From: Pelagomonas calceolata
Lineage: Eukaryota > Sar > Pelagophyceae > Pelagomonadales > Pelagomonadaceae
Length of the DNA stretch: 64,000 nt
NCBI GenBank assembly: GCA_918797485.1
Contig: CAKKNE010000006.1
Coordinates: 3,472,001 to 3,536,000, forward strand
Direction of reading: 5' to 3'
Positions 12,251 to 59,954 of the stretch are shown piece by piece. The number at the start of each line of letters is the position of its first letter. Position 1 is the stretch's first letter. Below the pieces are notes generated by a model, which saw only the letters and a program-made list of their open reading frames with translations, made no database searches and was not told where the DNA came from. Position numbers and translations under genes: made by a program.

Positions 12251-12273
12251 GCTAGTGTCTTTGTGCCGCTAGT
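12251..12273 (+). promoter_or_regulatory. Common promoter palindrome, degenerate copy
   Basis: GCTAGTGTCTTTGTGCCGCTAGT lies 95 bases before the ATG at 12368 and 259 bases from the PRP22 start, inside the divergent 375-base gap 11993-12367. I see nothing else in that gap. Confidence 0.55.
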
Positions 12274-12367
12274 AAAGACCTCGTCAGGCAAATCAGCGGC
12301 CAAAGCACGCCATACGCTCGAAATATTGCATAACGTGCGAGCCGTACTCGTCCCACGCATACCTGCG

Positions 12368-12931
12368 ATGATGCCGAGGCATAGCCTGCGATTGCTTGCC
12401 TTGCTGGGCCTCAGCCAGGCCCTGCTTGCCCCGAGCCGCAGCGCTGTCAAAGCGCGAAGCGACGTCGTCGTGGCCTCGACGCCGGCGGAGGTCGCCATCG
12501 CGGCGCAGACGCAGCTCTTGTCGTTAGCGGCGGTGACGACGGGCGAGGGCCTCTGGTCGACGGTCTCGTTCGGCTTCAGCGTGGGACGGGCGATCCAGTG
12601 CCTGGCGCCGCCTTTATTAGCCTCGGTGGTCTTAGTAGGCGCGTCGGGCTCCGTCGGCTCGGGCGTCGCCGGCGAGATGGCGCCGGGATTATTAGCCTCG
12701 TCAGTCGCCACGCTCGGCCTCGTCGCGTCCTACGCTTCAAGACTGTCAGAGAAGCAGACGGGCGACGAGGGCGACGACCCGCCGAAGGAGGTTATAGGCC
12801 TGTTCGCTGTATTGGCATTCTTCGGCTTCGCGACGGCGACGCAAAGTCTCTTCGCGGCGGGCATCGTGGGCGTGCCGCAGCTGCCCGACTTCTTCGGGAG
12901 CGGGGAGCTGCCGGACGACCTCGGTCTGTAG
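12368..12931 (+). CDS. Membrane protein with N-terminal signal/targeting peptide
   Basis: The frame is open from 11999, but the ATG at 12368 begins a clear hydrophobic leader (MMPRHSLRLLALLGLSQ) ending near ALLAPSRSA, so I start there: 187 residues. Three or four hydrophobic segments follow (near LLASVVLVGAS, GLLASSVATLGLVASY and IGLFAVLAFFGFATA). The C-terminus has PQLPDFFGSGELPDDLGL. The leader resembles a signal peptide or bipartite plastid presequence of a stramenopile, without a clear ASAFAP motif. No family recognised; a plastid or secretory membrane protein is my inference. Confidence 0.6.
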   Translation: MMPRHSLRLLALLGLSQALLAPSRSAVKARSDVVVASTPAEVAIAAQTQLLSLAAVTTGEGLWSTVSFGFSVGRAIQCLAPPLLASVVLVGASGSVGSGVAGEMAPGLLASSVATLGLVASYASRLSEKQTGDEGDDPPKEVIGLFAVLAFFGFATATQSLFAAGIVGVPQLPDFFGSGELPDDLGL

Positions 12932-13113
12932 GCTTAACTTGGACTACTGCTAGGTGCGCGTTCCCCCTTCGTCGCGGGGCGCCCCAATCCGTTGAGCTAT
13001 CTGCATCGTCTGTGTTTGCGGTCGCGAGCGCGGCCGTTGAGAGCGGGCTTCGTATGAGTTCCGGTGCGCCGCCGGGCCCAGACCTCCTGCGCGCGATTCC
13101 TGGCGTGCTTTGA

Positions 13114-14352
13114 AGGGGGGCTAGGGAGGGGCTACAAGCTCGTAGGGTAAGAGCTTGGAGGGGGGGGTCCGCCGTTTTGATAGTTTGCATCAGTGTGTAT
13201 TTGCCTTCGCGCCTCGACACCGCAACCATTATCCCCCTCTGGGCTGCCCTCGGGGCACGGCCCGAACTCCCTGACCTCTCGCCGAGGTCGGAAGCGCGGC
13301 GGGCCGCCGGAACCGACGAGCCGGTTGAGCACCGGGCTGCCACCGGAGTCACTGCCGCGAGCGCACACCCGGAACCGTCGACTCGTCACCGGGCTGCCAC
13401 CGAGGTCACCCAGACGGTCACCCGGACGGCCGTAGAGCCGAGAGCGGAACCGTCGACCCTTTGGTCGCAGACGCGCGGCGGGCCGCCAGACCAAGAGCCG
13501 CTTGAGCACGCCGGGCTCGACGCCCTGCTGGCCGAGGTCGAGGCCGAGCAGGAGGCCCAGACGGTCGATCCCCGCGGACGGCCGCAGACGCAACCGCAGA
13601 ACCTCGCGGACGCGGCGCGGCCGGAGGTCACCCAGACCGCGCTCGCCGCACACAACAAGACGGAGGTCCTCTGCAACCACTGCGGGGGGCGGCTCACGCA
13701 CGGCGAGGCCAAGTGCCCCCACTGCGGCGGCCAGGCCACGCACGCGCTCCACTCGCCGCCCCCCAAGATGCAACACAGCATGGAGATGACGCCGCCCCGG
13801 AAACAACAAATGAAGCGCCCGCCGATGACGCCTAGGGTCAAACACACGACGGCGTTCGGGGCCGTATTGCACGTCCTGAAAGGCCAGCCGAAACCTCAGG
13901 GATGCTGCGGCAGCGAGCACCACGTCATGACGCTCTTCGAGGGCGGCATCCAGGCGCAGTCGACGGACACGCACTGCTGCGGCTGCTGCGAGCACGTCTA
14001 CGTCAAAGTGATCCCGAAGCACACGATCATCGGCGTCGACGTCAATTCCAAGAGGTACTGCTGCTCGAACTGCTGCAAGACCTCCAAGGTCCACTTTAAA
14101 GTGAAAAGGGACCCGTCGATGCAGGCGACGAAGGGCTGGTGGCACAAGGACGAGACTTCCGTCTATCTGAAGATCCGGGGCATCGCGAACACGCATTTAC
14201 TCTTCGACTACGTCTACGGCATCCTGGCCAAGTCCGGCGTCGGCGACCGGGCCCACAACCTCGCGCACATGATGGCGTCGGGGCTCTGCGACAAGGCCGA
14301 GGTCAATTTAGATCTGGGCTTCGGTGTGGATGGCGGGGGGATCGGCGCTTGA
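13114..14352 (+). CDS. Cys-rich zinc-ribbon-like protein, 5' end unresolved
   Basis: The frame is open from 13114 after an in-frame stop, yet its first ATG is only at 13768, after the best zinc-binding motif. A short in-frame ATG stretch at 13054 could be an upstream exon joined by an intron I could not place. The N-terminal half is Pro/Glu/Arg-rich with a repeated GLPP/HRAAT phrase. Then come CNHCGGRLTHGEAKCPHCGG, a typical zinc ribbon, and a second Cys cluster (CCGSEHH, HCCGCCEH, CCSNCCK) within a folded-looking C-terminal domain ending at 14352. No family recognised. Metal binding is strongly suggested; function is unknown. Its stop lies 8 bases from the convergent gene at 14361. Confidence 0.6.
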   Translation, partial: RGAREGLQARRVRAWRGGSAVLIVCISVYLPSRLDTATIIPLWAALGARPELPDLSPRSEARRAAGTDEPVEHRAATGVTAASAHPEPSTRHRAATEVTQTVTRTAVEPRAEPSTLWSQTRGGPPDQEPLEHAGLDALLAEVEAEQEAQTVDPRGRPQTQPQNLADAARPEVTQTALAAHNKTEVLCNHCGGRLTHGEAKCPHCGGQATHALHSPPPKMQHSMEMTPPRKQQMKRPPMTPRVKHTTAFGAVLHVLKGQPKPQGCCGSEHHVMTLFEGGIQAQSTDTHCCGCCEHVYVKVIPKHTIIGVDVNSKRYCCSNCCKTSKVHFKVKRDPSMQATKGWWHKDETSVYLKIRGIANTHLLFDYVYGILAKSGVGDRAHNLAHMMASGLCDKAEVNLDLGFGVDGGGIGA

Positions 14353-14360
14353 GTAAATAC

Positions 14361-14966
14361 TTACGCCTGACGCTCACGTTTTCGTCGTCGCGCAGCCTTC
14401 TTTCGTTCCATCCGCGCGTGCTTGTCGCCAGCGACCTGGCAGCGCAGCGCCGACGGCGAGAGGGGCTGGGCTGTTGCGACGGCGTCGAGAGCCGTCTCAC
14501 TTTGTAGAATATCGTCGCTCTGGCGCGCGAGTCGCGCCGCCAAGCCGCTTTTGGGGGATTGGTGCGGCGCGGGCGGCGGCGCGGGCGGCGCCGCCGGCGC
14601 CGACGCCCCGCCGGTCATGCGCCGCGCCAGCGACACGCCCGCCACGGATCGGCACGCCGGCGCAGCTCTATGCTTGCCCCGCGCCTTCTCGCGCTGCTCG
14701 CGCTTCCGTCGCGCCGAGGGCAGGCGCTGCGTCGACGCGGTGTCGTAGGATCTCCCTGTGGACGGCGCCGGCTCGGGCAGCGCCCTCAATTCCAAGTGCG
14801 GCACGCGGACCACCTCGTCGTCGGACTGGGGCTCCCTCGGCTTCGGGGCGTCCGCGCCCCAGGCGTCGTCGTAGGTTGTGTTCAGGGTGACACCGGCCTC
14901 GAGGTCCTCGATCGATGCGGGGGCGACGCGCGCGACGCTGCCCTCGTGGAAGGGATTAATAGGCAT
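14361..14966 (-). CDS. Hypothetical basic, Ala/Pro-rich protein
   Basis: Starting at the ATG at 14964-14966 (MPINPFHEG) gives 201 residues; the frame stays open upstream to 15137, but that part looks like leader DNA. The N-terminus is acidic (TLNTTYDDAWGAD, SDDEVVRVP), the middle is disordered with Ala/Pro runs, and the last 20 residues are almost all Arg/Lys. It may bind nucleic acid through the basic tail (inference). No recognised domain. Confidence 0.5.
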   Translation of the reverse strand: MPINPFHEGSVARVAPASIEDLEAGVTLNTTYDDAWGADAPKPREPQSDDEVVRVPHLELRALPEPAPSTGRSYDTASTQRLPSARRKREQREKARGKHRAAPACRSVAGVSLARRMTGGASAPAAPPAPPPAPHQSPKSGLAARLARQSDDILQSETALDAVATAQPLSPSALRCQVAGDKHARMERKKAARRRKRERQA

Positions 14967-15137
14967 GCTGTGGGAGCTGATCGCGGCGCGTTGGGCGCCC
15001 TGTAGACCGTCTGGGGCAGCACCTTCGCGCAGCAGCACGTTGGTTGGTCGGCGGTGGACCGGCCCTTGTTCGTCTCCACAGGCGTCTTTGGAGGCCGTAT
15101 ATGGATGCCCTTGGAGATCTCTACTCGTACGGCTCAC

Positions 15138-15165
15138 TTGCTAAGTGTCTTTACAGGTCGCTAGC
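15138..15165 (+). promoter_or_regulatory. Common promoter palindrome
   Basis: TTGCTAAGTGTCTTTACA followed by GGTCGCTAGC, in the 452-base divergent gap (14967-15418): 172 bases from the minus-strand start and 254 from the ATG at 15419. Nothing else was recognised in the gap. Confidence 0.7.
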
Positions 15166-15418
15166 CCAAGTCGTCTCGCGGCCTTTGTGCCTAATATACG
15201 CGCATTGCTACTCGCCTGTTGCTGAAAAGTGACGACATGTCGCCCTCATTGCTGCTACAGCCCAGAGCTGCAACGCCAGCGCGTGTACGTGCGCGCCCGA
15301 GGCGATAGAGTAAGGCACAAGAGATACCGCACGGACGCGAGCTCGCGCGCGAGGCCATCAATCCGCGCAAGCGGACCCAGAGGCAATAAGCGCCGCACCT
15401 CGACCGTCGAGAAGCAGG

Positions 15419-17830
15419 ATGGGAAAAAAGGCGCGCGGCCGCAAGGGCGGCATCGTGGCCGCCGAAAACGCACACAATCAACGGGTGCGCGCCTCGCGCG
15501 CTGCGACGGCGGCAGCCATGTTCTCGAATACCGACCGAAGCGCGGAGCGTTATCCGGGCTTCACGGCCTTCTCGAGTAGGGTCACCAGTCTCCTCGGGGA
15601 TGTGGTGGCCGGTCGTGACACTGACGCTACGTTCGAGCAGCAGGACGAAGTGCTCCGCCTCGGCCCCGGCGAGAAGAACTTCGCGGGCGCGGACCGGATG
15701 TGCACGCCCTGCCGGCGGTGCTCGGAGGCGTACAACGGCAGAGGCATCGTCTGCGACGTCTGCGGCGTCACGTGGTGGTGCAGCGCGCATTGCCGCGCGC
15801 TGGATGGCGACGGGCACAAGGCGACGTGCCACCACGTGAAGCTGCTCGGCGTCCAGATCAAGCGTGACGGCATGCGCGCGTTGCCCTTCGTCCAGGAGTC
15901 TGGCGACATTGGATGCTTGTTCGACCACCCGCGCGCGTCCGTCGAGACGGGCGGCGTCGCCTACGCCGCCGCGAACGGCGACGTCGCGGCCATCGACCGC
16001 CTGCTCGCTCAACACGGCGCGGCCGCGGCCGGGGCGACGACCGACGAGTCCCCGGTGCCGCCGATCGTCTGCGCGGCGCTCCAGGGGCACGCCAAGGCCG
16101 TGACGCGGCTGCTTAGGGCGGGCGCCGATCCCAACGCGGTGAGCCACCTCGGATGCACGGCCGTGTTCGGCGCCGCGCAGAACGGCCACGTCGCTGTCAT
16201 CGAGGCGCTGGCTGGCTCGGGCGCGGACTTCGACAAGCCGGACGCCGGGGCCATCACGCCGCTGGGCATAGCGATAGAACACGCGCATCCCGCGGTCGTG
16301 GACGCTCTACTCGCCGGAGGAGCGGACCCCGACCTCCGCTCGGGCCGGAACGCCTGTCCGCCGCTCGCGCTCGCGGCGACCCAGGCGGCAGAGAAAACGC
16401 TCCAGACGACGCGTCCGGGTTCGATGATTCGCGCGGGGACCCCCGTGCTGGACAAGAGCATCGGCATCGACGCGTCCGGCCTCGACGTGAGCGAGTCGGA
16501 CGAACCGCGCGTGCGCACCCTGGGGGCACCGCAGAATAGCAACGCGGTCACCTTCTTGATCGACATGCCCCTCGTCGACTACGTCTCGAAGCAGGCCGAG
16601 ATCACGGCGCGCCTCCTCGCCGCGCCGGGCCTCCGCGCCGTCGACGGCATACCGTTATTCGTCCCGCTCGTGGACTTTGCTACCGCGGCCGCGATGAACT
16701 GCGTCGCCGCCGCGCCGGCGCTCGCGGCCACGCGCGCCCTCATCGCGGCCGGCGCCGACCCGAACGCCGCGAGACGCGACGACAGGACCAGGGAGGACGA
16801 CAAGCTGACGATCATCCAGGGCGGCTCCGGCGACAAGGGCGTTCGGGGCCTGCTGCAGTCCAAATTCGGCGGCTTCCTCGCGCCGAGCGACGTCGAGCGC
16901 CTGGACCGGAGCGATGACATGAGCGCGTGCCTCACGCCACTGCTCGCGCTCTGCCACTTCCGGCGCCGCGTCGAAGCGCCGCGGCTCGAGCACTACCGCG
17001 CGCTGCTGGACGCGGGCGCCGACCCGGACCGCGGCGTCGGCTCTGTCCGCCTCTCGCCTCTCCTGGGTGCCGTGGTCCGCGACGACGCGGCCGTGGCTTC
17101 GGCGCTCCTCGCAGCCGGCGCCGACGCAAGCGGCACGCACGACCTCGTGCTCTTTCGGTGCGACCGCTTCGTCTACTTTGACCCGGAAGACGGCACGACA
17201 GGCGGCGGTCTGGCGCTCGCGTTGGACCAGGCGCGCGCGCGGCGGACGCTCTCGACGCTCGAGTTCGCGGAGGTCCACCGGCCGCGCTCGGAAGTGACGC
17301 GGCTCCTCCGCGCGGCGGCGGGCGGCGGCGGCGGTTACGATCGCGGCGAACTCGCGGCCATGGGCGTGAAGGCGCTCAAGGCGGAGCTCGCCGCGCGCGG
17401 CTTGAGCGCCGACGGCTGCTTCGAGAAGAAGGACCTCGTCGACCGCCTCGCCGCCGCGCCGGCTCCCGCGCCGGCGTCCCTGGCTACGGCGGACGCCGCG
17501 GCGGACTTTCGACTCATGGAGACCAAAGAATTGGCTGAGGGGCTCCCGGGCGCTCGGGCCGCGCGCGCCGTGCGCAAGATTCATCGGGCGCTCCGCGCGG
17601 CCGACGACGTCCTCGACGTCGACGCCTACACCGCGCCGGCGGCCGGGCCGGCGGCGGCGGAGGCGCGGCCCGCCTGCGCCAACTGCGGCAAGACCCGGCG
17701 CTGGGACAAGGTCGACAAGCCGCTCTCCAAGTGCGCGCGGTGCAAGTCCGTCGCCTACTGCGGCGCGGCGTGCCAGAAGGCCCATTGGAAGGCCCACAAG
17801 GCCGCCTGCCGCGCCGCGAGCGCCTCCTAG
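15419..17830 (+). CDS. Ankyrin-repeat protein with two MYND zinc fingers and a SAP-like motif
   Basis: 803 residues from an ATG at 15419, intronless. A basic N-terminus (MGKKARGRKGG) precedes a MYND finger (about 95-140: CxxC, CDVC, WWCSxHC, HKATC). A long ankyrin block follows (about 180-620; repeats such as GHAKAVTRLLRAGADPNAV and AALLAAGADASG). A SAP/LEM-like helix pair (about 640-685: LKAELAARGLS...KKDLVDRL) precedes a canonical C-terminal MYND finger (about 755-797: CANCGK...CARCKSVAYCGAACQKAHWKAHKAAC). MYND and ankyrin modules both bind proteins and SAP modules often bind DNA, so a nuclear scaffold or regulator is likely (inference). Its stop lies 41 bases from that of VPS8. Confidence 0.88.
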   Translation: MGKKARGRKGGIVAAENAHNQRVRASRAATAAAMFSNTDRSAERYPGFTAFSSRVTSLLGDVVAGRDTDATFEQQDEVLRLGPGEKNFAGADRMCTPCRRCSEAYNGRGIVCDVCGVTWWCSAHCRALDGDGHKATCHHVKLLGVQIKRDGMRALPFVQESGDIGCLFDHPRASVETGGVAYAAANGDVAAIDRLLAQHGAAAAGATTDESPVPPIVCAALQGHAKAVTRLLRAGADPNAVSHLGCTAVFGAAQNGHVAVIEALAGSGADFDKPDAGAITPLGIAIEHAHPAVVDALLAGGADPDLRSGRNACPPLALAATQAAEKTLQTTRPGSMIRAGTPVLDKSIGIDASGLDVSESDEPRVRTLGAPQNSNAVTFLIDMPLVDYVSKQAEITARLLAAPGLRAVDGIPLFVPLVDFATAAAMNCVAAAPALAATRALIAAGADPNAARRDDRTREDDKLTIIQGGSGDKGVRGLLQSKFGGFLAPSDVERLDRSDDMSACLTPLLALCHFRRRVEAPRLEHYRALLDAGADPDRGVGSVRLSPLLGAVVRDDAAVASALLAAGADASGTHDLVLFRCDRFVYFDPEDGTTGGGLALALDQARARRTLSTLEFAEVHRPRSEVTRLLRAAAGGGGGYDRGELAAMGVKALKAELAARGLSADGCFEKKDLVDRLAAAPAPAPASLATADAAADFRLMETKELAEGLPGARAARAVRKIHRALRAADDVLDVDAYTAPAAGPAAAEARPACANCGKTRRWDKVDKPLSKCARCKSVAYCGAACQKAHWKAHKAACRAASAS

Positions 17831-17871
17831 GTCTACTATAAGACTGTTACACAATACTCACAACAAACACA

Positions 17872-22224: not shown

Positions 22225-22409
22225 TGGCTCTGCTGTGAGTGCTGTGAGTGCTGCTGTATGTGATCTGCTATTTCTAGCGCTGCGGACGCGGTCCGGCCGC
22301 AGTAGCGCTTGCAGCAGGAGTGATACTGCTTGCAGCAGCGCAGATCTTGTGCGCTGCCGCGCTCTCGCACGCTTGATGCGGCTGGTCGCAAGCTCGTCCA
22401 AAAAGCTGG

Positions 22410-22436
22410 GCTAGCGGTCGTAAGACACTAGCAAGC
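22410..22436 (-). promoter_or_regulatory. Common promoter palindrome
   Basis: GCTAGCGGTCGTAAGACACT continuing to AGCAAGC, 186 bases upstream of the VPS8 ATG. The remaining gap to 23050 shows no gene that I can support. Confidence 0.75.
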
Positions 22437-23054
22437 ATAAAACGGCGAGACGTTTGTAAGCGCGCGATGCGTTCGAGCACCCATCCCTGCGCTGGAAGTA
22501 CGTGTTGCGCTCGCAGGGCCGTGTCTCGTATCCGTGATTGGCTTTGGCTTTACGCGCGCGCTCTCGCGGTGCGCGACATTCGTTGCTGCTAGAACCGGTC
22601 TCTACGAGTCCACCCAACCCTCCGTACCACAACTAAACTCTGAACTCCTCGCCCGGAATTATGATTTGAAACCCGAACATCGATGGTCCTGGCACAATCT
22701 CAGGGAGGTTTTGCATCACTGCTACGTTGTCGGGCTAACACGTGGATCTGAAGCGCTTTGGCGCAAGCCAATTAAACCGCTTTAACCGACAGGCGGGCTT
22801 GAACGCATCGATAAGAACCCATAAGAGCCATCAGAGCTCTTAACAACTGTGAATCGCAGAGTTGAAGCGAGAACCGCAGCGCTAAGCGATTTGTTCGGCT
22901 CTGTCTGATACAGCGCGCAAAGACATCTAACTCACCATCAACATTGGCCGCCGCCACAAGGGGCGACCTGCATTAACAACACCAAAAACACAACCGCGCG
23001 TTCACCGCGTCTCACCGCGCACCGCCCAATTCACAGTGCACAAAGTCAAATTTC

Positions 23055-27750: not shown

Positions 27751-27942
27751 CCTTGCGCGCGCTTGTTTGTTTTACGGGCTCAGGCTGAGCCTTTGCTTCC
27801 CTGCTCGGCGCGCGACGCGGCGGCACGGGAACGCGTTAGCTGAGCGCTTGGGCGTATTTTGACAGCGCTCTGGGGTCCAGCGCGTCTCACAATGGTCCGC
27901 AGCGCGTTTAAATGCGAGGGTCGCGTCGATGGCGGGACCATT

Positions 27943-27968
27943 CTAGCGTGCCCGTAACACACTAGCAA
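27943..27968 (-). promoter_or_regulatory. Common promoter palindrome
   Basis: CTAGCGTGCCCGTAACACAC then TAGCAA, 193 bases upstream of the SMC6 ATG. The neighbouring gene ends here, so the element can only belong to the SMC6 start. Confidence 0.65.
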
Positions 27969-33143: not shown

Positions 33144-33168
33144 TCCTAGTGCCTTACAGGCCGCTAGC
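33144..33168 (+). promoter_or_regulatory. Common promoter palindrome
   Basis: CCTAGTGCCTTACAGGCCGC then TAGC, 225 bases before the GRC3 ATG, in the 372-base gap 33021-33392. Confidence 0.7.
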
Positions 33169-35016: not shown

Positions 35017-35040
35017 GCTAGCGGTAAGACACTAGCAAGC
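35017..35040 (-). promoter_or_regulatory. Common promoter palindrome, shortest spacer
   Basis: GCTAGCGGTAAGACACTAGC then AAGC, 171 bases before the phosphatase ATG. Only ten bases separate the GCTAG/CTAGC arms. Here its orientation is opposite to the downstream gene. Confidence 0.75.
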
Positions 35041-37393: not shown

Positions 37394-37421
37394 GCTAGCG
37401 GTATGTAAGACACTAGCAAGC
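37394..37421 (-). promoter_or_regulatory. Common promoter palindrome
   Basis: GCTAGCGGTATGTAAGACAC then TAGCAAGC, 282 bases upstream of the ATG at 37112, within the 425-base gap 37113-37537. Only that gene starts in the gap. Confidence 0.75.
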
Positions 37422-38332: not shown

Positions 38333-38520
38333 CCTGTTGATGTTGCGTTAGCACGCACTGTGTGAGGAGCAGTGCTAATATTGGCCACTAAGCCACGTAT
38401 CGGTTGCGGCTTTGCCTGCAGCGTGAATGGTGTGACTGATAACACCTTTTCCTGCGCACAATGATCTCAGCAGCGTCTTAGCGCTTGCGTACGGCCTCAG
38501 CTTGCTTGCCTGGGGCATCC

Positions 38521-38543
38521 CTAGTGTCTTACAGGCCGCTAGC
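38521..38543 (+). promoter_or_regulatory. Common promoter palindrome
   Basis: CTAGTGTCTTACAGGCCGCT then AGC. The gap holds the start of the SpoU gene (189 bases away) and only the 3' end of the EF-hand gene. Confidence 0.7.
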
Positions 38544-43600: not shown

Positions 43601-43627
43601 GCTAGCGGCCTGTAAGACACTAGCAAG
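43601..43627 (-). promoter_or_regulatory. Common promoter palindrome
   Basis: GCTAGCGGCCTGTAAGACAC then TAGCAAG, 127 bases before the ATG at 43754 and opposite in orientation to that gene. Confidence 0.75.
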
Positions 43628-45252: not shown

Positions 45253-45279
45253 GCTAGCAGCTTTAAGGCACTAGCCAGC
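45253..45279 (-). promoter_or_regulatory. Common promoter palindrome, diverged copy
   Basis: GCTAGCAGCTTTAAGGCACT then AGCCAGC, 278 bases upstream of the DUF2470 gene start. Confidence 0.5.
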
Positions 45280-46728: not shown

Positions 46729-46752
46729 TTGCTAGTGTGTAGTTACGCTAGC
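46729..46752 (+). promoter_or_regulatory. Common promoter palindrome in front of a gene relic
   Basis: TTGCTAGTGTGTAGTTACGC then TAGC, only 64 bases before the ATG of the truncated MYND gene. It shows that the element stayed attached to a gene family's 5' end after the body was lost. Confidence 0.7.
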
Positions 46753-49190: not shown

Positions 49191-49216
49191 GCTTGCTAGT
49201 GTCTTACGCCGCTAGC
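49191..49216 (+). promoter_or_regulatory. Common promoter palindrome, divergent promoter
   Basis: GCTTGCTAGTGTCTTACGCC then GCTAGC, placed 190 bases from the bestrophin ATG and 142 bases from the VPS13-like ATG. Confidence 0.8.
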
Positions 49217-52300: not shown

Positions 52301-55300
52301 CTGTTGGACGAAGTCAAGGGCGCTCACACTTCACATCTCACGATGAAGGACGACCAGGTGCAGACGCGTCTTCTTAATAAAACTGGTGTCGATGTGCTGC
52401 TGGACGTCTTCGACCACGAAGGATCGTTCCTCGAGAAGGTCCGCGTTTCTAGAAATTCGGAGGGGACGTTGTCTCCTAAATCGGCTCATGCCATTATCAG
52501 TCTGAGAGACGGCGAGACGGCCTGGACCGTGGAGCGGCCGTTGCCTTGTAGGACGGCGGCGCGCGTCGTAGCCTCGACAACAGCTGGTACACGACGTCCA
52601 AAGAGCCCCTCGCACACGCGTCGTCGAGGAAGGATTGGCCCGCCCCTGACCTGGTCCGGCGCCTTCGACGGGCGAGGCTCTTTACAACTCACTGTCCGAA
52701 GTTCATTAGTAGCTTCCAACGCGTGCGGGTGTGATGTGGTCGTGAGCGCCGGTGGGAGAGATTCGGTCATCGAACGAGGGCCACCCGATAACCCAAAGGA
52801 GACGTCGTTGGCGTGGCCCTTGGCCGACGCTTTGTATTTCAATGATGACGATGACGAAGATGCACCGAGGAGATTGCCGAAGCTGACGGTGGGTGCCGGG
52901 CCAAGAGCTGCCTTGTTGGATGCCAGGACTTCCCTATTAGACGCGCCCTGGCGGCTGGCGCGGGCTTCCGTGCTTAAGAGGAGGTGGGTCCTGTGCAGGG
53001 TCGTCGCCGACGGAAGCACGAATATGGTCCGGGGCGCTCGGCTCGAATTGCGGGCTCCGCTCATTGTGAGGAACCACCTGCCCGTTGCTGTGGATTTACA
53101 AGTCATGCAGCAGCAGGGGACTGATAAAAAATGTGCCGCCGAGAGTCATTTACGACCTGGCGAATCTCTGGCCGTGTCGTCGGTCGACGTAAGGGACTAC
53201 TGCTGGCTCAACACCCGAACTGATGGGAAGTGGGTTTCTGCTAAAATTAATTCGCGGAGCTGGCGAAGGGCTGTTGCGGCCTCGAGAGCGCTGGGGCGGA
53301 GACCTCCCAAAAGACGCAAGGCTTTGGAGGCCTCATCGTCGTGTGGCTACGTGCTCGATGTCGCCACGCCCGACGGGGATTTGAGTCTGGGGCCTTTACT
53401 CTCGACCGGTTCGGCGCCGGCCGTCGCGCTCGAGTGCACACTACGGGCCCCCTGCGTCGTCGTCGACCGGTCCGGTTTAAGCGGCTTGGTCTTCAGCGCG
53501 TCGTCCATTTCATCTGTGTCATCTCTAGAAGCAGGAGAAGCACTCGTCGATGCGACTACGTCTGTCGTAGTACCTTCATCATTACGTTTTGCGGCGTACT
53601 CTGCTGTTAGTACAAGACCCCTCTCGTCGAAAAGGAGAGCGTCAGCAAGGCACGAGGGTTTATTCTGGGTGCCCGACGGCGACGGGGCCTTCCTGAGGCA
53701 CCCTTGTACGAGGCAACTCATGACCTGTGGCACTGATCTAGTTGATACTGACTTCACTCTATCAGTTGTAGCGCGGAGCGCTTGTACCATTTTAGTAGCC
53801 TGCGACATGGCACCGACGTGGCTTAATAACAAGGGTTTCGCGCGGAGCGGCCACGAAAGACATAAGATCCTCCACGCGCGATCGGATACAACCTTGACGG
53901 CCTTCTCCCTCTATCAGAAAGAGCTACAAGAGGGCGAAGCCTTGACACTCCTACAGGCTAGTGGAAGGTACATGTACGCCGCCTTCTGTACGACGCAAGA
54001 CGATGAGGGATATGCCTCTGCAAGGTCCGAGGAGGAGGAGGACTTCTACGAGTGCGTCACGGAGGAGGCGTCGCCCGTACACGTGCTGAACGCGTCGCAA
54101 TCATTGGTCGTGTCGCGGGATGGTCTCAGTACTTCCGTTAGGTTGGCCGACGCCGCGTCGCTGGGGGGGCCGGTGCCTTTGGACCTTGGCGGCGCTAAAT
54201 TGGCGATCTGCGTCGTGGCGGAGGGGCCCACGCGTGTGGCCACGGTCGTGCCTCGGGTTGTCGTGGCGAACGCTCTTGGTTGTTCCTTGTTGTTGCACGG
54301 TCTGACCATACCATCAAACGGTATGGAGAGCTACCACGGGTCCCTTACTTCATTAACAGTAGGCGCATCTACCACGGGTGACCTACGGTTAGACAGACAC
54401 GGCAGCCAAGCCGTCGTCTTATCGCCTGAAAGACGTACAGTGTCTTTGAAAGATGCGTCGGTGTTACGGGTCGAAGCGAGGCCTCGATTGGACGGAGACG
54501 ACTTCGCTACTTTGTGTTGTGTGGGTAGAGATAATGGCGACGCGCCTTTACTATCGGTTGCGAACGAGACCGACGTCTTGGTGGCCTGCTGGCAATCAAA
54601 GGTCAAAGACGCGCCCGTCTGGCTCGTCGAGCCGCGTTCAGCCTCAGCCTTCGGCTGGAGCGAACCTGAACTCAGTAAGAAGCGGATTTGCGTCGTGGCG
54701 TTTGCGTCTCGATCTACGAGTGACGCTGAAAGTGTCGTCGAGTCTCAATTCGCCAAACTAGTCAAAGCAGCAAGGGCGCTGCGCCTGGACGCCGCCGAGG
54801 AAAAACGATTACCTCTACCACTCATAGACGCTTCCGTTGATTTCCAAGTGTTAGATGGACCCTGGGGCGTCGACGCGCGCGTCGACCAAAGAGCTGGGGG
54901 GAGGGTGCTGCGGTTGTGTGCGAAGAGCGAAAGTGCTTATGATGTTGACCTCGGAGACGCTTCACTATCAGGAGAATTTGCCTTTCGCGCGCCCCGGGCG
55001 TCGTTGTCGATTGTGCTCGATGATAGTGAAGGGAAGGCTCGGAGGGAAGCCCTGTTTGGCCAAGTCAAACGTGTGGACTTGAGCTGTCGGAGCGCGTTGG
55101 ACGCCTCCGGTAAACATGGGGCCGCTCTGGATTTGACCGTTGGGGATGTGCGCGTCGAGTCCCACGCGCGGAACGCCCGCCTGAGAGTTGTGCTGGAGCG
55201 GGACGACCAAAATGACGAGGATGTGCTACATGCGTCGCTCGCGCGGCAGCGCGACGGCGCCGCGGAGGTCTGGAGGTATGCTGGTTTACATGTTGCACCT

Positions 55301-56980
55301 CTAGCAGTGGCATTGGATAGAGCCACGCTCGCCGCTCTCTTCGACACCTACTCGTCCATCGTATCACTAGCTCTAGGGAAACAAGGCGATACGTCAATAA
55401 CAACGTGGGCCCGCAACCTCACGGACCGTGATTTGAGGAAGAGGACCGGCGACGCGGCGTCGCTATTCAAGGCCTTCTCGAAAGAACCCAAGTTATTTGT
55501 GGACGCGGTCGAACTGGATCCCACGGAGCTGAGGTGCACGTTGGCGCTGGCAGCTACCGCATCATCCGACGATCATTTGGACCACATCGATTTGGTGGCG
55601 CCGCTGGCGGCCATGTCCGACGCGTCGTTTAAGGCCTCTCCCTTCATATTGAGGCAGGCGTTATTGCCCGCGAGACAACTTAGATCCGCTCTAGTAGCTC
55701 ATGCTCGCCGAGAGTTGGTGAGACAATTGTTCGGCGTCGTGCTAGATGTCCCTCAAACGTTACTCCATGATCTCGGCGGCGGCGACGTTATATCAGGAGT
55801 GACCAATACTATGGCGGTTCCTACCACAGTCATCAGTTCGGGCGTCACGGCATTGGGCGACCGGTTAGCAGGAGCGCACGCCTTGCTGAGCGGCGACGCG
55901 GCCTACTTCTGTGAAAGAGCTCGAAGAAGGCGTCGTAGGAGACGACGGGCGGACCGGCGCGACGTCGGCCTCGCGGGCGGGCTGAGAGCGGCCGCAAGGG
56001 ACGTGGCGCGCGGCGCTGCCGGTGGTCTTGAGAGTTTGTTGTTGGACGCACCGAGAAGCAACGATGCGAGGGACCTGTGCGGGGCGCTGGTTGGTGCAAT
56101 AGTCAAACCAGCGGTCGGTGCCGCCGACGCGCTGGCTGCGGTGGCCGCTGGTATCACGCATGATTGCCGCGGCGGCTCTCATCATGAAAGACGGCGATCA
56201 TCCATACAACAAACGGAAAGGCGCACGGCTCGAAGACGAGCCCTGCCGGCTTTACCAGACGGCGCCGGACCTCGAAGATTAGTGGCACCCTTCTCGGCTA
56301 GAGGGGCGGCGGCCCAGGCCCTGTGTCGGGGCGCGTTCCCGCGGAAGCACGACGAACTCATGTCGCCGTTGGCACGAGCGATTCGAGTCGATCGACCGCG
56401 TAATGACGACGACGACGGCGGCGGGCTGAGTCTTGGAGGGGCAGACGCCGACGACGACCGGGGCGACGTCGCGGCCGACGGCGAGCCCTACGTGTGGCAC
56501 TGTTCCTTGGCGGACGGGGGGTTAGTCGCTCTAGCGACGCCTGGCGTTGTGGTGCTGACACAAGATATCGGCAAACCTTGGGTGGCCCGGTGGCGCGACG
56601 TGCGGTGCGCCCAGGACGGTGTTGCGTCCATAAAATTTGAATCGGGGCGCCACGACCCTTTTACGAGTTCTATCAACGAGTGTCGCGTCGAATGTACCGA
56701 TGTGCGAGGGGCGGCGCGGCTGCGCGCTTCTTTACGGGCCGTCGGTATATTAGTGGACGGCGGCGGCGACGACGGCGACGCGGCCTTTGATGATGTATCG
56801 GACGGCGACGCGCCGCTGCCGCCTTGGTTGGAAAGTGCAGCCAGGGAGGCCACGGCGCCTCCCGAAAGGCGCAATTGCTTGAGGGAGCGGTGCAAGGATG
56901 CGCCCTGGCGCCGCCATCCTGTCGAGGCTGATGATGATGATGTGCCCTCGCCTGGGTCTACGCCTCGCGCACTGTTGTAG
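49358..56980 (+). CDS. VPS13: VPS13-like bridge-type lipid transfer protein
   Basis: 2540 residues in one uninterrupted 7.6-kb frame. The N-terminus is chorein-like (residues 1-110: LARLLRAVCRRWLGG, VQLSVFTGELELVDCELDG), although the usual first residues are shortened. A long beta-rich groove region follows. The VAB/SHR-like part has repeated Asn-initiated beta modules (APLIVRNHLPVAVDL near 1230; VVVANALGCSLLLHG near 1630). The C-terminal ATG2_C-like stretch has the Gly-rich helix pattern (GGGDVISGVTNTM, GLAGGLRAAARDVARG, near 2140-2260), followed by a PH-like end (VWHCSLADGGLVALA to VECTDVRGAARL). VPS13 proteins move bulk phospholipid between organelles at contact sites. A run of Arg near residue 2190 is unusual. 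Confidence 0.88.
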   Translation: MRVLGLARLLRAVCRRWLGGLIVVDDVQLSVFTGELELVDCELDGPKLTRLLARLGLRCRVVNARAAKVSVSLPITWRRGARIRVVVADPGASLELDDAEHEETPQKPRRALWRRLALRVAEAVDLEVRNAAARCLLKDGAACGVGLGSAAIAATTPDGETWRKRVVISGLYAYCDEDAAEWDAQDAYALSAALVADAANALSVEENVVLAPASLTGSVALTRSSEGLRLDLDGETSHVWRATASAKRLMEAVAQHTPVKRSSSSQSLDSVGDAGSVNSEDLHEDQQLKRDINAASKIIIGGCLRGALRLQVRDRSDRLFCHVGGSLDLRGKCEVDETGLRDYAVEAALDDVYVGDASPCTSATKRWRHLVRKRRDPSPCDEHAIGEAWLSQSPAVVKLTARPGLRIEVYCRHLDVVLHYPLIGRLKGAFSGESQPFTTSLRVEFATSDCTVELPYDWDVDRGSARLGWHEAVGALDTSRSDPTVNDDFDTDFAQFCARRLDDAYDGLIQKTLFGADCRSTGFYLHERAPLDYDFRVDRARCSSFLASSANIAPVVATLEGAYLALGVSRFAEPGRRIGLKAGTDTACKLVVDGPRLARILAVVGKYLGGPPPLDSDGRRLPPLETDEAPRTNQVDVALDVPLCRVVLLGPEASSRCLVVTVRDLCVRFRQRGHGDRGFRAQTYRFRDATIALAKERDAHVNPSRDSAKTIVRGTSDGAFEYLSRWPAQQRPQGPLGDVCADALSSLFGDAPSEQCRAPDGLKRLVVDQPIVRCAVSEALFGFRCLLAFLKGFQARIRWVAYDPTEETVPIVNATERTIARIAGKVDVSSAIKKRRDQLLQRAASRTSRELKSEVVERINSFSADDLRFVARLEYDLRRYDVVLTSTNDRRPLVRCRGDAVYTTDDDQVSQLERVVRLDAVRVDAYRVRTARWEPLVEPGLSGTACTSAKAGKPSRCCLAFDDSATVEATLTRDAALALRGLLDEVKGAHTSHLTMKDDQVQTRLLNKTGVDVLLDVFDHEGSFLEKVRVSRNSEGTLSPKSAHAIISLRDGETAWTVERPLPCRTAARVVASTTAGTRRPKSPSHTRRRGRIGPPLTWSGAFDGRGSLQLTVRSSLVASNACGCDVVVSAGGRDSVIERGPPDNPKETSLAWPLADALYFNDDDDEDAPRRLPKLTVGAGPRAALLDARTSLLDAPWRLARASVLKRRWVLCRVVADGSTNMVRGARLELRAPLIVRNHLPVAVDLQVMQQQGTDKKCAAESHLRPGESLAVSSVDVRDYCWLNTRTDGKWVSAKINSRSWRRAVAASRALGRRPPKRRKALEASSSCGYVLDVATPDGDLSLGPLLSTGSAPAVALECTLRAPCVVVDRSGLSGLVFSASSISSVSSLEAGEALVDATTSVVVPSSLRFAAYSAVSTRPLSSKRRASARHEGLFWVPDGDGAFLRHPCTRQLMTCGTDLVDTDFTLSVVARSACTILVACDMAPTWLNNKGFARSGHERHKILHARSDTTLTAFSLYQKELQEGEALTLLQASGRYMYAAFCTTQDDEGYASARSEEEEDFYECVTEEASPVHVLNASQSLVVSRDGLSTSVRLADAASLGGPVPLDLGGAKLAICVVAEGPTRVATVVPRVVVANALGCSLLLHGLTIPSNGMESYHGSLTSLTVGASTTGDLRLDRHGSQAVVLSPERRTVSLKDASVLRVEARPRLDGDDFATLCCVGRDNGDAPLLSVANETDVLVACWQSKVKDAPVWLVEPRSASAFGWSEPELSKKRICVVAFASRSTSDAESVVESQFAKLVKAARALRLDAAEEKRLPLPLIDASVDFQVLDGPWGVDARVDQRAGGRVLRLCAKSESAYDVDLGDASLSGEFAFRAPRASLSIVLDDSEGKARREALFGQVKRVDLSCRSALDASGKHGAALDLTVGDVRVESHARNARLRVVLERDDQNDEDVLHASLARQRDGAAEVWRYAGLHVAPLAVALDRATLAALFDTYSSIVSLALGKQGDTSITTWARNLTDRDLRKRTGDAASLFKAFSKEPKLFVDAVELDPTELRCTLALAATASSDDHLDHIDLVAPLAAMSDASFKASPFILRQALLPARQLRSALVAHARRELVRQLFGVVLDVPQTLLHDLGGGDVISGVTNTMAVPTTVISSGVTALGDRLAGAHALLSGDAAYFCERARRRRRRRRRADRRDVGLAGGLRAAARDVARGAAGGLESLLLDAPRSNDARDLCGALVGAIVKPAVGAADALAAVAAGITHDCRGGSHHERRRSSIQQTERRTARRRALPALPDGAGPRRLVAPFSARGAAAQALCRGAFPRKHDELMSPLARAIRVDRPRNDDDDGGGLSLGGADADDDRGDVAADGEPYVWHCSLADGGLVALATPGVVVLTQDIGKPWVARWRDVRCAQDGVASIKFESGRHDPFTSSINECRVECTDVRGAARLRASLRAVGILVDGGGDDGDAAFDDVSDGDAPLPPWLESAAREATAPPERRNCLRERCKDAPWRRHPVEADDDDVPSPGSTPRALL

Positions 56981-57003
56981 TAAATATGAATTGTCTGTTC
57001 AAG

Positions 57004-57912
57004 TTAGCTACTCCCTTTACTAAACTGCGCCGCGTTCCGCGCGTGGTCGAGGAAGTCTCGCGCCGGGTCGATCCGCACGACGCCGCGCGCCAGAATCTCG
57101 GCGTCGTCGAAGAGCGGCTCGAGTGGTGCTTCGGCGGGCAGAGGACATATTGTGTCTGGCCGCGGCGGGTTCTCGATCGCGTTATACGCGACGATGAGCG
57201 ATCGTCGCCAGCTCGGCGACTCGTTCGGCGCCGAGCTGTGGAGCAGATTCGAGTGCGTGAATAATACATCGCCTGGCCGCATCGTAGCGTAGACCAGGGG
57301 AAATCTCTTCACCGCTCTCCCCAAGGCCTCTTGGTCGACGCCCGCTTGTTCGCCACTCACGCCGTGCGCTAAACGGCCGACCCGATGCGAGCCGCTCAGG
57401 AGTTGCATGCAGCCGTTCTCAATAGTGTGGTTGTCCACAGCTAGAATCGCCGACAGCATTTTGTCGGGCTCGAGGCAGCCGACCTGATACCAATAACCGA
57501 AATCTTGGTGCCATTCCCACGTGCCGCCCACTCGCGGTTCTTTCAACATGACTTTTGTGTGGAAGTGATAGATTGGAGATCCAATCAAACGCCTCGCTGC
57601 GTTCACCCATCGTCTGCCACGAGCGAAATATCCGAAGGTGTCGTTGCCTGCTTGATTCCAGAGCGTCAACTTCGACCGCGCTCCAGCACTGTCGACCATC
57701 GGCATGTCATTTGACGCGACGAGCGGGTCCGTCTCGATCGCTCGTCGCAGCACGTCGGCCTCGGCGGCAGAGAAGAGGTTTCGGATGATGACGTAGCCGT
57801 CTCTCTTGTATCGCTCCACGTCTTCTATCGCAAGCGACGACGCGCATTCATCGGTCGCATCGGTCGCGCGTGCCAGCGCCGCGCACAGCAGCAGTGCAGC
57901 CGCAAGCTTCAT
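57004..57912 (-). CDS. Phytanoyl-CoA dioxygenase (PhyH) family, secreted/ER
   Basis: 302 residues with a signal peptide (MKLAAALLLCAALARA). The Fe(II)/2-oxoglutarate core is complete: the HxD metal pair in WEWHQDF (H135, D137), the distal His in LLHSSAPN (H225) and an Arg (236 or 237) for 2-oxoglutarate. The N-terminal DGYVIIRNLFSAAEADVLRRA is typical. PhyH relatives hydroxylate acyl-CoAs or small secondary metabolites; the secretory leader makes a peroxisomal phytanoyl-CoA role unlikely, so the substrate is open. Only 23 bases separate its stop from that of VPS13. Confidence 0.92.
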   Translation of the reverse strand: MKLAAALLLCAALARATDATDECASSLAIEDVERYKRDGYVIIRNLFSAAEADVLRRAIETDPLVASNDMPMVDSAGARSKLTLWNQAGNDTFGYFARGRRWVNAARRLIGSPIYHFHTKVMLKEPRVGGTWEWHQDFGYWYQVGCLEPDKMLSAILAVDNHTIENGCMQLLSGSHRVGRLAHGVSGEQAGVDQEALGRAVKRFPLVYATMRPGDVLFTHSNLLHSSAPNESPSWRRSLIVAYNAIENPPRPDTICPLPAEAPLEPLFDDAEILARGVVRIDPARDFLDHARNAAQFSKGSS

Positions 57913-58038
57913 TTTCTGCTCTCAAAGCTGCGCGCGACACGGCATCGCTGGCTCATCGATCGCAGCGATGGATGCAAAGCTGAACACGTCACAGGAGCTC
58001 TGTATCTGCGTGTTCGGCGCAACTTTTGGCCGATCGGA

Positions 58039-58066
58039 GCTAGCGTCATGTAAGACACTAGCAAGC
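58039..58066 (-). promoter_or_regulatory. Common promoter palindrome, divergent promoter
   Basis: GCTAGCGTCATGTAAGACAC then TAGCAAGC, 127 bases from the PhyH ATG and 174 bases from the thioredoxin ATG. Confidence 0.8.
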
Positions 58067-58239
58067 AAGCCTGGCTCGAGCTCAATCTGCCCACAATTAG
58101 GCTCGTGGAAGCTAATTGATCAACCAGCAGCTCTTTGGCATTGATCTAAAACCACTGCGAAGCTTGTGGCTTGGACTCCGCAATCCGTGTTACACAACAG
58201 CTACAAGCCTCTCAAGGCAAAGCCAAGATCGCACCAATC

Positions 58240-58974
58240 ATGCTACGCGTTCTCCTCTCCGCAGTGATTATTGGCTCCAGCCACAGCTTCTGTCCGGCCG
58301 CAAGAAGTGCGTGTCAGCGGCACGGCATTAGTGCGGAACCGGACGACGCGGTCGGCGACGATGCCACGAGCGAGGCACTATCCACCAGCGACATCGCCAC
58401 AACCGCGACTGCGGCCGCCGCCGGCGCGACGGTCGCAAGCACAGTCGCCACCGCGGCCGGCACCGTCTGCGCCACCGGCGCGTGCACGGCGGCCGGCGCC
58501 GCGGCAACGGCGGCGGCTACGGGAACTGCTGGCGCCGCGGCGGGAACCGCCGGGGCGGGCCTGCTTTCACAACTGGCGTATCCTATCGCCGCGTTGGGCC
58601 TCTCGGGCGCATTAGCCCTGCAATCCGGTCCCGAGGCGCTCATGGACCAGGCGGCGCACAGCGCGCTCTACGCCGACGCGATGCGATCGAACCACCCCGT
58701 GGTGCTCGAGTTCTACAGCAACGATTGTCGCCATTGCCGGCACGCGGCGGCGTCGCTGGCCGAGACCGCCGCCGCGCACCCGGGCACCGACTGGGTGATG
58801 GTCGACTGCCAAAAGCCGGAGTCGCGGTCCCTCGTGGAAAAATACAACGTCGGGCCGATCCCGCACTTCGCTTTTCTGGACGAGTCCAAGACGTTGCGGC
58901 GAACAGAAGTCGGCGAGAGTGGCGCGAAGAGAGCCGATGCCGTTCTCCGCGCGCTTGAGGGGTCTTCTTCGTAA
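58240..58974 (+). CDS. Plastid-targeted membrane thioredoxin, HCF164/TxlA-like
   Basis: I start at the ATG at 58240, whose product begins with a signal peptide and a Phe-containing cleavage motif (IIGSSHSFCPAARS), the ASAFAP-like signature of stramenopile plastid proteins; 244 residues. A long Ala/Thr/Gly-rich hydrophobic stretch (about 50-140) precedes a thioredoxin fold with active site CRHC (163-166, in EFYSNDCRHC) and the cis-Pro in VGPIPHFAFL. The thylakoid protein HCF164 and cyanobacterial TxlA have the same order, anchor then domain, and pass reducing power to the lumen for cytochrome b6f assembly. The Ala-rich segment is low complexity and long for an anchor. Confidence 0.78.
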   Translation: MLRVLLSAVIIGSSHSFCPAARSACQRHGISAEPDDAVGDDATSEALSTSDIATTATAAAAGATVASTVATAAGTVCATGACTAAGAAATAAATGTAGAAAGTAGAGLLSQLAYPIAALGLSGALALQSGPEALMDQAAHSALYADAMRSNHPVVLEFYSNDCRHCRHAAASLAETAAAHPGTDWVMVDCQKPESRSLVEKYNVGPIPHFAFLDESKTLRRTEVGESGAKRADAVLRALEGSSS

Positions 58975-59008
58975 CTTGAACAAAATTTAAATTTACTAGA
59001 CAGAACCA

Positions 59009-59776
59009 TCACGCCCCCATGCCGCCGACGACGATTCCCGCGAAGACCACGACGAGCGCCACCAACTCGGCCACCGACAGCCAATACAACTCGCCAAACC
59101 GCACCCAGAACGAAAACGCGTAGAAAACGAGAAAGATCGCCCCGAAGCTGGCGTACGTCAAGGTACAGAACGCGTCCCTCAACGCCTTCGACGCGATGGC
59201 CTTTGGCACCGTCGCGACGACCAGCGCCTGGTAAGCAGCGAGCATCAGCAAAAACGCGAGAGTGGAGAGCGCGTGCTCGCCGCGCATTTTAGACATTGGC
59301 GTCGCGGCGACAGTCACGATGCCGTGCACCGTGAAGCACGCAATGATGACCCGGGCGAGTCGCGCCGGTGCGGGCCGCGCGAGCTCCAGCAACGGCAGCA
59401 GGTCGAGACTCAGCGCGAGCCCGATCGTGGCGAGCTCCGTCGCCGGCGGCCGGTCCCACGCAGCTGAAAGGCGGTAGTCGTCTTCTGTAAAACCGGGTAA
59501 ATGACCATAGTACGAACTGACCGCGTACGTCAGCGCGATGACCGCGACGGCGCCGCCGACGGCCGCGATGCTCAGCCAGCGCGTCCACGACGCGGGCGGA
59601 CCTGTGGAGACGCCGACGACGACTCCGCACGCGTACCAGATAAATCCCACCAAAGCGAGCGCGTTCAGCCGGTAGGCGAAGACGACAACCGACGAGAGCG
59701 GCGGGCTTTCCATGGCGTACTTGTAGGTGCGCTCGAAGGACGCGCGGAAGGCGTCATTCTCCTGCGGTGTGGCCAT
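59009..59776 (-). CDS. Polytopic membrane protein, six to seven spans
   Basis: 255 residues. Hydrophobic segments are near FAYRLNALALVGFIWYACG, WLSIAAVGGAVAVIALTYA, ELATIGLALSLDLLPLLELA, VIIACFTVHGIVTVAAT, TLAFLLMLAAYQALVVA, ASFGAIFLVFYAFSFW and a last one near LVALVVVFAGIVVGGM. The spacing resembles the Frag1/DRAM/Sfk1 family, but no signature residue confirms it. It is convergent with the thioredoxin gene (34 bases) and shares a divergent promoter with the methyltransferase fusion. Confidence 0.65.
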   Translation of the reverse strand: MATPQENDAFRASFERTYKYAMESPPLSSVVVFAYRLNALALVGFIWYACGVVVGVSTGPPASWTRWLSIAAVGGAVAVIALTYAVSSYYGHLPGFTEDDYRLSAAWDRPPATELATIGLALSLDLLPLLELARPAPARLARVIIACFTVHGIVTVAATPMSKMRGEHALSTLAFLLMLAAYQALVVATVPKAIASKALRDAFCTLTYASFGAIFLVFYAFSFWVRFGELYWLSVAELVALVVVFAGIVVGGMGA

Positions 59777-59927
59777 GGTTGCTGACTGTACGTCTCTTGT
59801 GCCGCGTCGATAGCGTGATTGGCCTTACGTAGCACCAGTTCTGCCTTGTGAGATGCAGTGCCTGAATTTGCGCGGCAATCTGTTGCACGCAGACAGCTCT
59901 GAGGTGGTCAAATCTCAACGAGAGCTG

Positions 59928-59954
59928 TTGGCTAGTGTGTCAATAGACGCTAGC
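59928..59954 (+). promoter_or_regulatory. Common promoter palindrome, divergent promoter
   Basis: TTGGCTAGTGTGTCAATAGA then CGCTAGC, 152 bases from the membrane-protein ATG (59776) and 133 bases from the ATG at 60087. Confidence 0.7.

What the first reader, a model, noticed from the sequence alone, without database searches (positions are those of the whole stretch)
12251..59954. A dispersed palindrome marks about half of the gene starts in the window
At least 15 copies of one imperfect inverted repeat occur: arms GCTAG and CTAGC around a core that reads GTAAGACA next to one arm, often followed by AGC at the outer end (consensus one way: TTGCTAGTGTCTTAC, variable gap, CGCTAGC). Copies start at 12251, 15138, 22410, 27943, 31322, 33144, 35017, 37394, 38521, 43601, 45253, 46729, 49191, 58039 and 59928. 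All lie in intergenic spaces that contain a gene start, none inside a gene, and each is 64-282 bases from an ATG. Both orientations occur, and five lie between divergent genes. The genes share no function, so this looks like a general core-promoter or insulator element, or a hairpin at transcript starts. I know of no description of it.
Basis: partly seen in the sequence, partly recalled or inferred. Interest (0 to 1): 0.85.

Follow-up and report, generated by a model that had tools for sequence, protein, structure and literature searches.

The report
Shared palindrome at half of promoters
In the genome of a tiny ocean alga, one long mirror-image DNA signal sits once in about half of the spaces where genes start and was not seen between gene ends, so it is most likely the landing site of one still unknown protein that helps open promoters in both directions.

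Summary
All 15 listed sequences are there; 13 fit a two-block matrix, 15138 fits once indels are allowed, 31322 does not exceed controls. The assembly matches Pelagomonas calceolata RCC100. Genome-wide, GTAAGACACTAGC occurs 1741 times, its reversed control 0 times. In 234 kb there are 48 sites against 1 in control. Of the 46 strongest, 31 lie in 31 of 49 divergent gaps, 15 in 15 of 65 tandem gaps, none in 48 convergent gaps or 177 kb of predicted coding sequence. They lie a median 179 bp from an ATG, without strand preference. The site is a 20-24-bp imperfect inverted repeat without longer shared flanks; arm changes are not compensated, which speaks against a hairpin. In contigs of relatives, 6 of 7 sites recur in the matching P. 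calceolata promoter, one weakened and one flipped. Best reading: the dimeric site of a general promoter factor working both ways, like yeast GRF sites or the vertebrate CGCG element. Factor and chromatin effect are inferred. I saw no description in print.

The parts
12251..12273 (-). palindromic promoter element, spacer 3, 24.9 bits; divergent gap
15140..15165 (-). palindromic promoter element with two 1-bp insertions, 28.0 bits only when indels are allowed; divergent gap
22410..22432 (+). palindromic promoter element, spacer 3, 34.5 bits; divergent gap
27942..27966 (+). palindromic promoter element, spacer 5, 26.6 bits; tandem gap
33145..33168 (-). palindromic promoter element, spacer 4, 30.6 bits; tandem gap
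35017..35036 (+). palindromic promoter element, rare spacer-0 form, 33.2 bits; tandem gap
37394..37417 (+). palindromic promoter element, spacer 4, 36.4 bits; tandem gap
38520..38543 (-). palindromic promoter element, spacer 4, 34.6 bits; tandem gap
43601..43624 (+). palindromic promoter element, spacer 4, 36.4 bits; tandem gap
45253..45275 (+). palindromic promoter element, spacer 3, 23.9 bits; tandem gap
46731..46752 (-). weak palindromic element, spacer 2, 18.1 bits (left out of the 46-site statistics)
49195..49216 (-). palindromic promoter element, spacer 2, 33.9 bits; divergent gap
58039..58062 (+). palindromic promoter element, spacer 4, 36.4 bits; divergent gap
59931..59954 (-). palindromic promoter element, spacer 4, 28.9 bits; divergent gap

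Best explanation
It is a duplex-DNA binding site for one sequence-specific protein, probably bound as a dimer: in its commonest form a 24-bp imperfect inverted repeat of an 11-bp half-site, merged GCTAGYGKCHT, whose right half is stricter and is often followed by AAGC. It serves as a general promoter element. Bound once per promoter, about 180 bp upstream of the start codon, it would hold nucleosomes off and let transcription start on either side; between divergent genes one site serves both. Shown: sequence anatomy, genome-wide abundance, confinement to promoter gaps and single copy per gap in the sample, use in both orientations, recurrence in orthologous promoters of relatives. Inferred: protein binding, dimer, nucleosome depletion, effect on transcription.
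For: 1741 exact 13-mers vs 0 control; 48 sites vs 1 in 234 kb, information near background from about 6 bp outside. 31 sites in 31 of 49 divergent gaps, 15 in 15 of 65 tandem, 0 in 48 convergent, 0 in 177 kb coding; divergent vs convergent gaps p = 7e-13; convergent gaps are shorter, but with their share of non-coding bases 0 of 46 still has p = 0.0017; no gap in the sample held two (Poisson p about 0.001). Tandem gaps of 250 bp or more 14 of 41, shorter 1 of 23. Central in divergent gaps (mean offset 0.108, 0.25 expected; KS p 0.005), tandem orientation 7 same / 8 opposite, distance to ATG 173 vs 185 by orientation, p 0.54. In the 66 of 100 listed copies with spacer 4, two spacer columns match the mirrored right half (C 73%, T 77%; 31% and 19% expected). 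6 of 7 elements of relatives have a counterpart in the orthologous promoter; further contigs of one relative: 3 of 4 divergent, 6 of 13 tandem, 0 of 4 convergent gaps (contigs chosen because they hold the 13-mer). Pfam hit in 19 of 36 genes with it, 17 of 36 without.
Against: No binding, chromatin, start-site or expression data were available. 16 of 49 divergent gaps have no site even with indels allowed (18 by matrix, 2 recovered), so it is not universally needed. Gene models are my own ab initio calls on 0.7% of the genome. The mirror is imperfect: columns 6, 8 and 10 of the left half mostly differ from the right half (identity 0, 29 and 11%), and the spacer varies. Three of the six conserved pairs have flanks that are also 88-96% identical, one own counterpart is weak (16.5 bits) and one element has none. 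The binding protein was not identified.
Confidence: 0.74

Rival explanations
1. Strand-specific core promoter element that fixes the transcription start (Inr- or TATA-like).
For: Confined to gene starts, one per promoter in the sample.
Against: No orientation bias (7 to 8), distance to ATG spread over 91-277 bp (10-90%), central between divergent genes, flipped in one orthologous promoter.
Confidence: 0.06
2. Remnant or target site of a mobile element (MITE or solo terminal repeat) that inserts near promoters.
For: Palindromic, dispersed, thousands of copies; a separate repeat of about 150 bp lies beside two elements in L038.
Against: No shared flank beyond about 6 bp, variable spacer, one copy per gap, none in 48 convergent gaps, kept in orthologous promoters.
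Confidence: 0.05
3. Hairpin in RNA or extruded DNA cruciform at transcript starts.
For: Arms GCTAG/CTAGC can pair; one of four tested strands folds better than shuffles at z -3.5.
Against: 21 one-sided pair-breaking changes and no compensation in 48 sites; the GTAAGACA part of the loop is about as conserved as the arms; the other three strands z -1.0 to -1.8; no strand preference.
Confidence: 0.04
4. Insulator or chromosome-architecture site (CTCF-like) separating neighbouring genes.
For: Long, information-rich site (30 bits), as such sites are (recalled).
Against: None in 48 convergent gaps; one per promoter.
Confidence: 0.06
5. Replication-origin (ORC) or DNA-methyltransferase recognition site that happens to lie in open promoters.
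For: Promoter regions host such sites in other eukaryotes (recalled).
Against: One per about 5 kb in the sample is dense for origins, and a 30-bit split site is unlike methylase targets (both recalled yardsticks); not tested here.
Confidence: 0.05

Closest known systems
Yeast general regulatory factor (GRF) sites such as Reb1, Abf1, Cbf1; PMC2897762
   Same: Sites tied to promoter nucleosome-free regions; the set of factors is swapped between lineages (passages seen), so a lineage-specific site is plausible.
   Different: Sequence unlike Reb1/Abf1 sites (recalled); here one 30-bit inverted repeat covers about half of the sampled gene starts; nucleosome depletion not shown.
Vertebrate CGCG element TCTCGCGAGA; PMC6192621 (BANP as reader: abstracts listed)
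   Same: Palindrome in TATA-less promoters; one copy drives reporters both ways, imperfect palindromes work too (passages seen).
   Different: 10 bp with CGCG core and mostly within 50 bp of start sites; the present element is 20-24 bp, split, with a flexible spacer and no shared sequence.
Oomycete INR, FPR and DPEP core promoter elements (Phytophthora infestans); PMC3599244
   Same: Genome-wide promoter elements in another stramenopile (abstract and passages).
   Different: INR maps just upstream of the start site and DPEP is mostly forward in oomycetes; sequences unrelated; the word 'palindrom' does not occur in that text.
Promoter motifs of the compact sponge genome of Amphimedon (Sp1/GC-box, Nrf-1); PMC4773876
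   Same: Common motifs in bidirectional promoters of a gene-dense genome (passages).
   Different: Known factors and sequences; the commonest is in 29-36% of promoters.

Membership tests
General regulatory factor (GRF) site | Located in promoters of many unrelated genes | tested here: met
   46 of 46 strong sites in divergent or tandem gaps; Pfam hit rate 19 of 36 vs 17 of 36
General regulatory factor (GRF) site | Used irrespective of strand | tested here: met
   Tandem 7 same / 8 opposite, equal distances; flipped orthologue
General regulatory factor (GRF) site | Nucleosome depletion in vivo | not testable with these tools
   No chromatin data held
General regulatory factor (GRF) site | Bound by an identified DNA-binding protein | not testable with these tools
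   No binding data; of protein classes only C2H2 was searched
Bidirectional palindromic promoter element (CGCG-like) | Palindromic and sufficient for two-way transcription | tested here: inconclusive
   Imperfect inverted repeat, central in divergent gaps; sufficiency needs a reporter assay
CGCG/BANP element | Core TCTCGCGAGA | tested here: not met
   Consensus of the commonest form GCTAGCGKCMTGTAAGACACTAGC
Core promoter element (TATA, Inr type) | Fixed strand relative to the gene | tested here: not met
Transposon-derived repeat (MITE) | Shared sequence beyond the terminal palindrome | tested here: not met
   Flank information near background from about 6 bp out, 48 sites
RNA hairpin | Compensatory changes in the stem | tested here: not met
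   The one double change does not pair; 21 one-sided breaks in 240 arm cells
CTCF-like insulator | Boundary between contact domains | not testable with these tools
   Hi-C not held; 48 convergent gaps empty

The most novel reading that the evidence does not exclude
Pelagomonads run about half of their genes from promoters built around one lineage-specific, 24-bp, 30-bit palindromic hub, read by a single unidentified (perhaps new-family) dimeric factor that both clears nucleosomes and fires transcription in both directions in place of classical core elements; orientation is free, so the site can flip in evolution without loss.
Probability: 0.3. Interest if true: 0.82.

Novelty: new member of a known kind. 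Interest (0 to 1): 0.64.

Why it matters
I found little in print on promoters of stramenopile algae. [quoted passage not shown] Its information (30 bits, against about 13 needed to mark 6,600 places in this genome) and its split, nearly symmetric form are unusual for a general promoter site (recalled yardstick of about 12 bits for eukaryotic factors), and make it a clean case for how a lineage rewires its promoter code.

Tried and rejected
RNA families and tRNAs in the window: none. Motif in IMG/VR viral contigs: none for the 17-mer GTAAGACACTAGCAAGC or the two-block form with spacer 0-6 (records very near the own genome may be left out there). GCTAGCG alone is not enriched (7372 vs 9534 reversed). 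Gene-class bias: Pfam hit at E up to 0.001, some below the curated cut-off, in 19 of 36 genes (sampled from 62) with the element and in all 36 without 17; 4 of those 36 border the two gaps that hold an indel form. A word special to element-free promoters: none stood out in 18 gaps, not tested formally. Fixed partner sequence within 60 bp: none. Other pelagophyte genomes (Aureococcus, Chrysophaeum) were not available to me.

Dropped or against: two weak hits (46731 at 18.1 bits, C1:1142316 at 19.9 bits) were left out of the 46-site statistics; coding segments under 150 bp were ignored; an eighth, 15.5-bit hit in L038 was not followed; the 13-mer at G002:C146:9633 lies at the contig end and could not be scored. 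The 10 kb left of the window, the first 10 kb of contig 1 and 10 kb each of plastid and mitochondrion hold no site of 18 bits or more, and one of 16 fetched 3-kb loci (L013, picked for GCTAGCG alone) has none. In one search the 13-mer with one mismatch exceeds its control clearly in one bin (G002, 8 vs 3), not in the others (1 vs 1, 3 vs 3, 2 vs 1), as expected if only single stray contigs are there. In divergent gaps 21 sites lie on the minus and 10 on the plus strand of the assembly, probably chance.
Full report
Where it is. The window is C6:3472001-3536000 of an assembly of 32,445,274 bases in 8 contigs, two of which are 90,574 and 39,373 bases. The Pelagomonas calceolata RCC100 genome paper reports six nuclear contigs of 32.4 Mb, a 90-kb plastid and a 39-kb mitochondrial contig, 16,667 genes and 0.45 intron per gene (PMC9481584, passages). 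I take the organism to be that pelagophyte alga; no tool named it.

The observation. GTAAGACA occurs 7 times in the window against 0.75 expected, with none of 100 shuffles reaching 7. A two-block matrix (GCTAGCG, spacer 0-7, GTAAGACACTAGC), learned on the window, its two 10-kb neighbours and 150 kb of contig 1 (234 kb in all), finds 48 sites against 1 in the reversed sequence. Thirteen of the 15 are among them; 15138 appears with 28.0 bits when indels are allowed; 31322 does not exceed controls. Genome-wide, the exact 13-mer occurs 1741 times vs 0 for the reversed pattern, with up to two mismatches 4347 vs 298, and the exact two-block form with spacer 2-6 1291 times vs 0. Scaling the 48 sites gives about 6,600 in the genome (arithmetic).

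Anatomy. Information is 30.0 bits, 10.7 in the left and 19.3 in the right block, against about 13 bits needed to mark 6,600 places. Outside the element it is near background from about 6 bp on; the right side favours AAGC. Of 100 listed genome copies, spacers are 4 (66), 3 (27), 2 (4) and 5 (3); spacer 0 has 29 copies and spacer 1 one. In the 66 copies with spacer 4 the spacer mostly reads [G/T] C [C/A] T, so that the left half, GCTAGCGKCMT, resembles the right half read backwards, GCTAGTGTCTT. Columns 1-5, 7, 9 and 11 agree (the last two in 73 and 77% of copies); columns 6, 8 and 10 mostly do not (0, 29 and 11%). I read this as two unequal inverted 11-bp half-sites, 2 bp apart.

Placement. 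I predicted coding segments with a phase-specific Markov model trained on long ORFs. Of 46 sites of 20.5 bits or more, 31 are in 31 of 49 divergent gaps, 15 in 15 of 65 tandem gaps, none in 48 convergent gaps and none in 177,040 coding bases. Divergent against convergent gaps: p = 7e-13. Convergent gaps are shorter (mean 153 against 525 bases); given their share of non-coding DNA, none of 46 has p = 0.0017; no gap held two (Poisson p about 0.001). Double sites exist elsewhere: two exact 13-mers start 37 bp apart at C1:575887 and 575924. Tandem gaps of 250 bp or more hold one in 14 of 41, shorter ones in 1 of 23. The first ATG lies a median 179 bp away (middle half 134-227, 72 of 77 starts); in divergent gaps the site is central (mean deviation from the middle 0.108, 0.25 expected; KS p = 0.005); tandem sites point towards the gene in 7 and away in 8 cases. 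With indels allowed, 2 of the 18 remaining divergent gaps, 5 of 49 remaining tandem and 0 of 38 convergent gaps (those of 40 bp or more) rise above the best control. The listed 10 kb left of the window has no site, so density varies.

Relatives. A scan of GTDB genomes for the full form found four contigs in bins named Spirochaeta (two), proteobacterium and Desulfobacteraceae, from marine samples by their names (recalled). About 3 chance hits would be expected from the size of the collection (my estimate), so I tested them. L038 encodes a decarboxylase 95% identical to own C6:2244568, with DNA pieces at 82-94%; L037 matches own C1 around 2154785 at 96 and 88%, but only from position 2043 rightwards; L040 encodes a protein 97% identical to own C2:3221661, DNA 94%; L039 matches own C6:3207604 at 89% over 0.34 kb. 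I conclude that they are contigs of relatives of P. calceolata binned with bacteria. The seven elements of 19 bits or more on these contigs, against the own promoter at the same place: L037 and L039 identical, 24 of 24; L040 21 of 22; L038:4290 21 of 22, next to a left flank that hardly aligns; L038:2198 kept with an inserted base and two changes, 16.5 bits; L038:5352 has its counterpart at the same place but on the other strand, 35.0 bits; L038:461, the weakest at 19.7 bits, has no counterpart of 9 bits or more. So 6 of 7 recur. The L037, L039 and L040 pairs say less, because their flanks are also 88-96% identical. Five stretches of the bin of L038 (27 kb with L038, chosen because they hold the 13-mer) have 10 sites of 16 bits or more vs 0 in control, none in coding segments, in 3 of 4 divergent, 6 of 13 tandem and 0 of 4 convergent gaps; one lies beyond the last segment.

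What it is not. Not a repeat family with longer flanks in this sample. Not a hairpin by covariation: among 240 arm cells there are 21 one-sided breaks and one double change that does not pair; folding of four strands gave z of -1.0, -1.8, -1.0 and -3.5. Not a class-specific regulon as far as Pfam tells: 19 of 36 sampled genes with it and 17 of 36 without it have a domain hit. Not seen in viral contigs.

Mechanism. Use in both orientations, single copy, central place and presence at about half of the sampled gene starts fit a protein site that opens promoter chromatin and supports initiation on both sides. Yeast GRF sites and their replacement between lineages (PMC2897762, passages) and the palindromic CGCG element, one copy of which drives both directions in reporters (PMC6192621, passages), are the closest working models. 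Binding, dimerisation and chromatin effect remain inferred; the factor is unknown, and of protein classes only C2H2 was searched (two single matches with a short model).

Literature. The species with 'motif' gave 7 papers and with 'chromosome-scale genome' 9 listed. I looked up terms in three P. calceolata papers: 'promoter' and 'palindrom' do not occur in the main texts of the genome, nitrogen and iron/light papers. The 8-mer GTAAGACA stands in 406 papers, of which I saw 20 titles, none on this subject; the 11-mers TAAGACACTAG / CTAGTGTCTTA stand in 7, titles unrelated, not opened. Aureococcus with promoter and motif gave 31, 12 listed, passages of two seen; stramenopile core promoters 82, 12 listed, passages of two seen; pelagophyte with start site and promoter one, on a diatom. 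In what I saw nothing describes this element; supplements and most subscription papers were not searched.

Noticed in passing
divergent gaps of window and C1:1.00-1.15 Mb: A second word, GGCTGCCC/GGGCAGCC, occurs in 19 of 49 divergent gaps and in none of the same gaps reversed; it is the top-ranked 8-mer of that scan, in promoters with and without the palindrome.
   Followed up: partly
L038:286-460 and 2050-2172; L041:3082-3237; L003:1346-1466; C1:1126253 and 1107977: A dispersed repeat of about 150 bp in intergenic gaps; in L038 it lies directly beside the palindrome at 2198, where P. calceolata has no such insert.
   Followed up: partly
L037-L040 (GTDB bins labelled Spirochaeta, proteobacterium, Desulfobacteraceae): Public bacterial bins hold contigs of Pelagomonas relatives, one with DNA at 82-94% identity, perhaps an undescribed sister species.
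   Followed up: partly
L037:2043: Similarity to P. calceolata stops about 100 bp left of the palindrome: a rearrangement within a promoter or a chimeric contig.
   Followed up: no
window 5021-8632 and 15419-17830: Ankyrin-repeat protein kinase and ankyrin-MYND proteins; one ankyrin-bearing query found 97 matches in the genome, a large family.
   Followed up: no
G000 whole genome: Only two single C2H2 zinc-finger matches over threshold in 32.4 Mb; few for a eukaryote, but the 23-residue model misses weak fingers.
   Followed up: no
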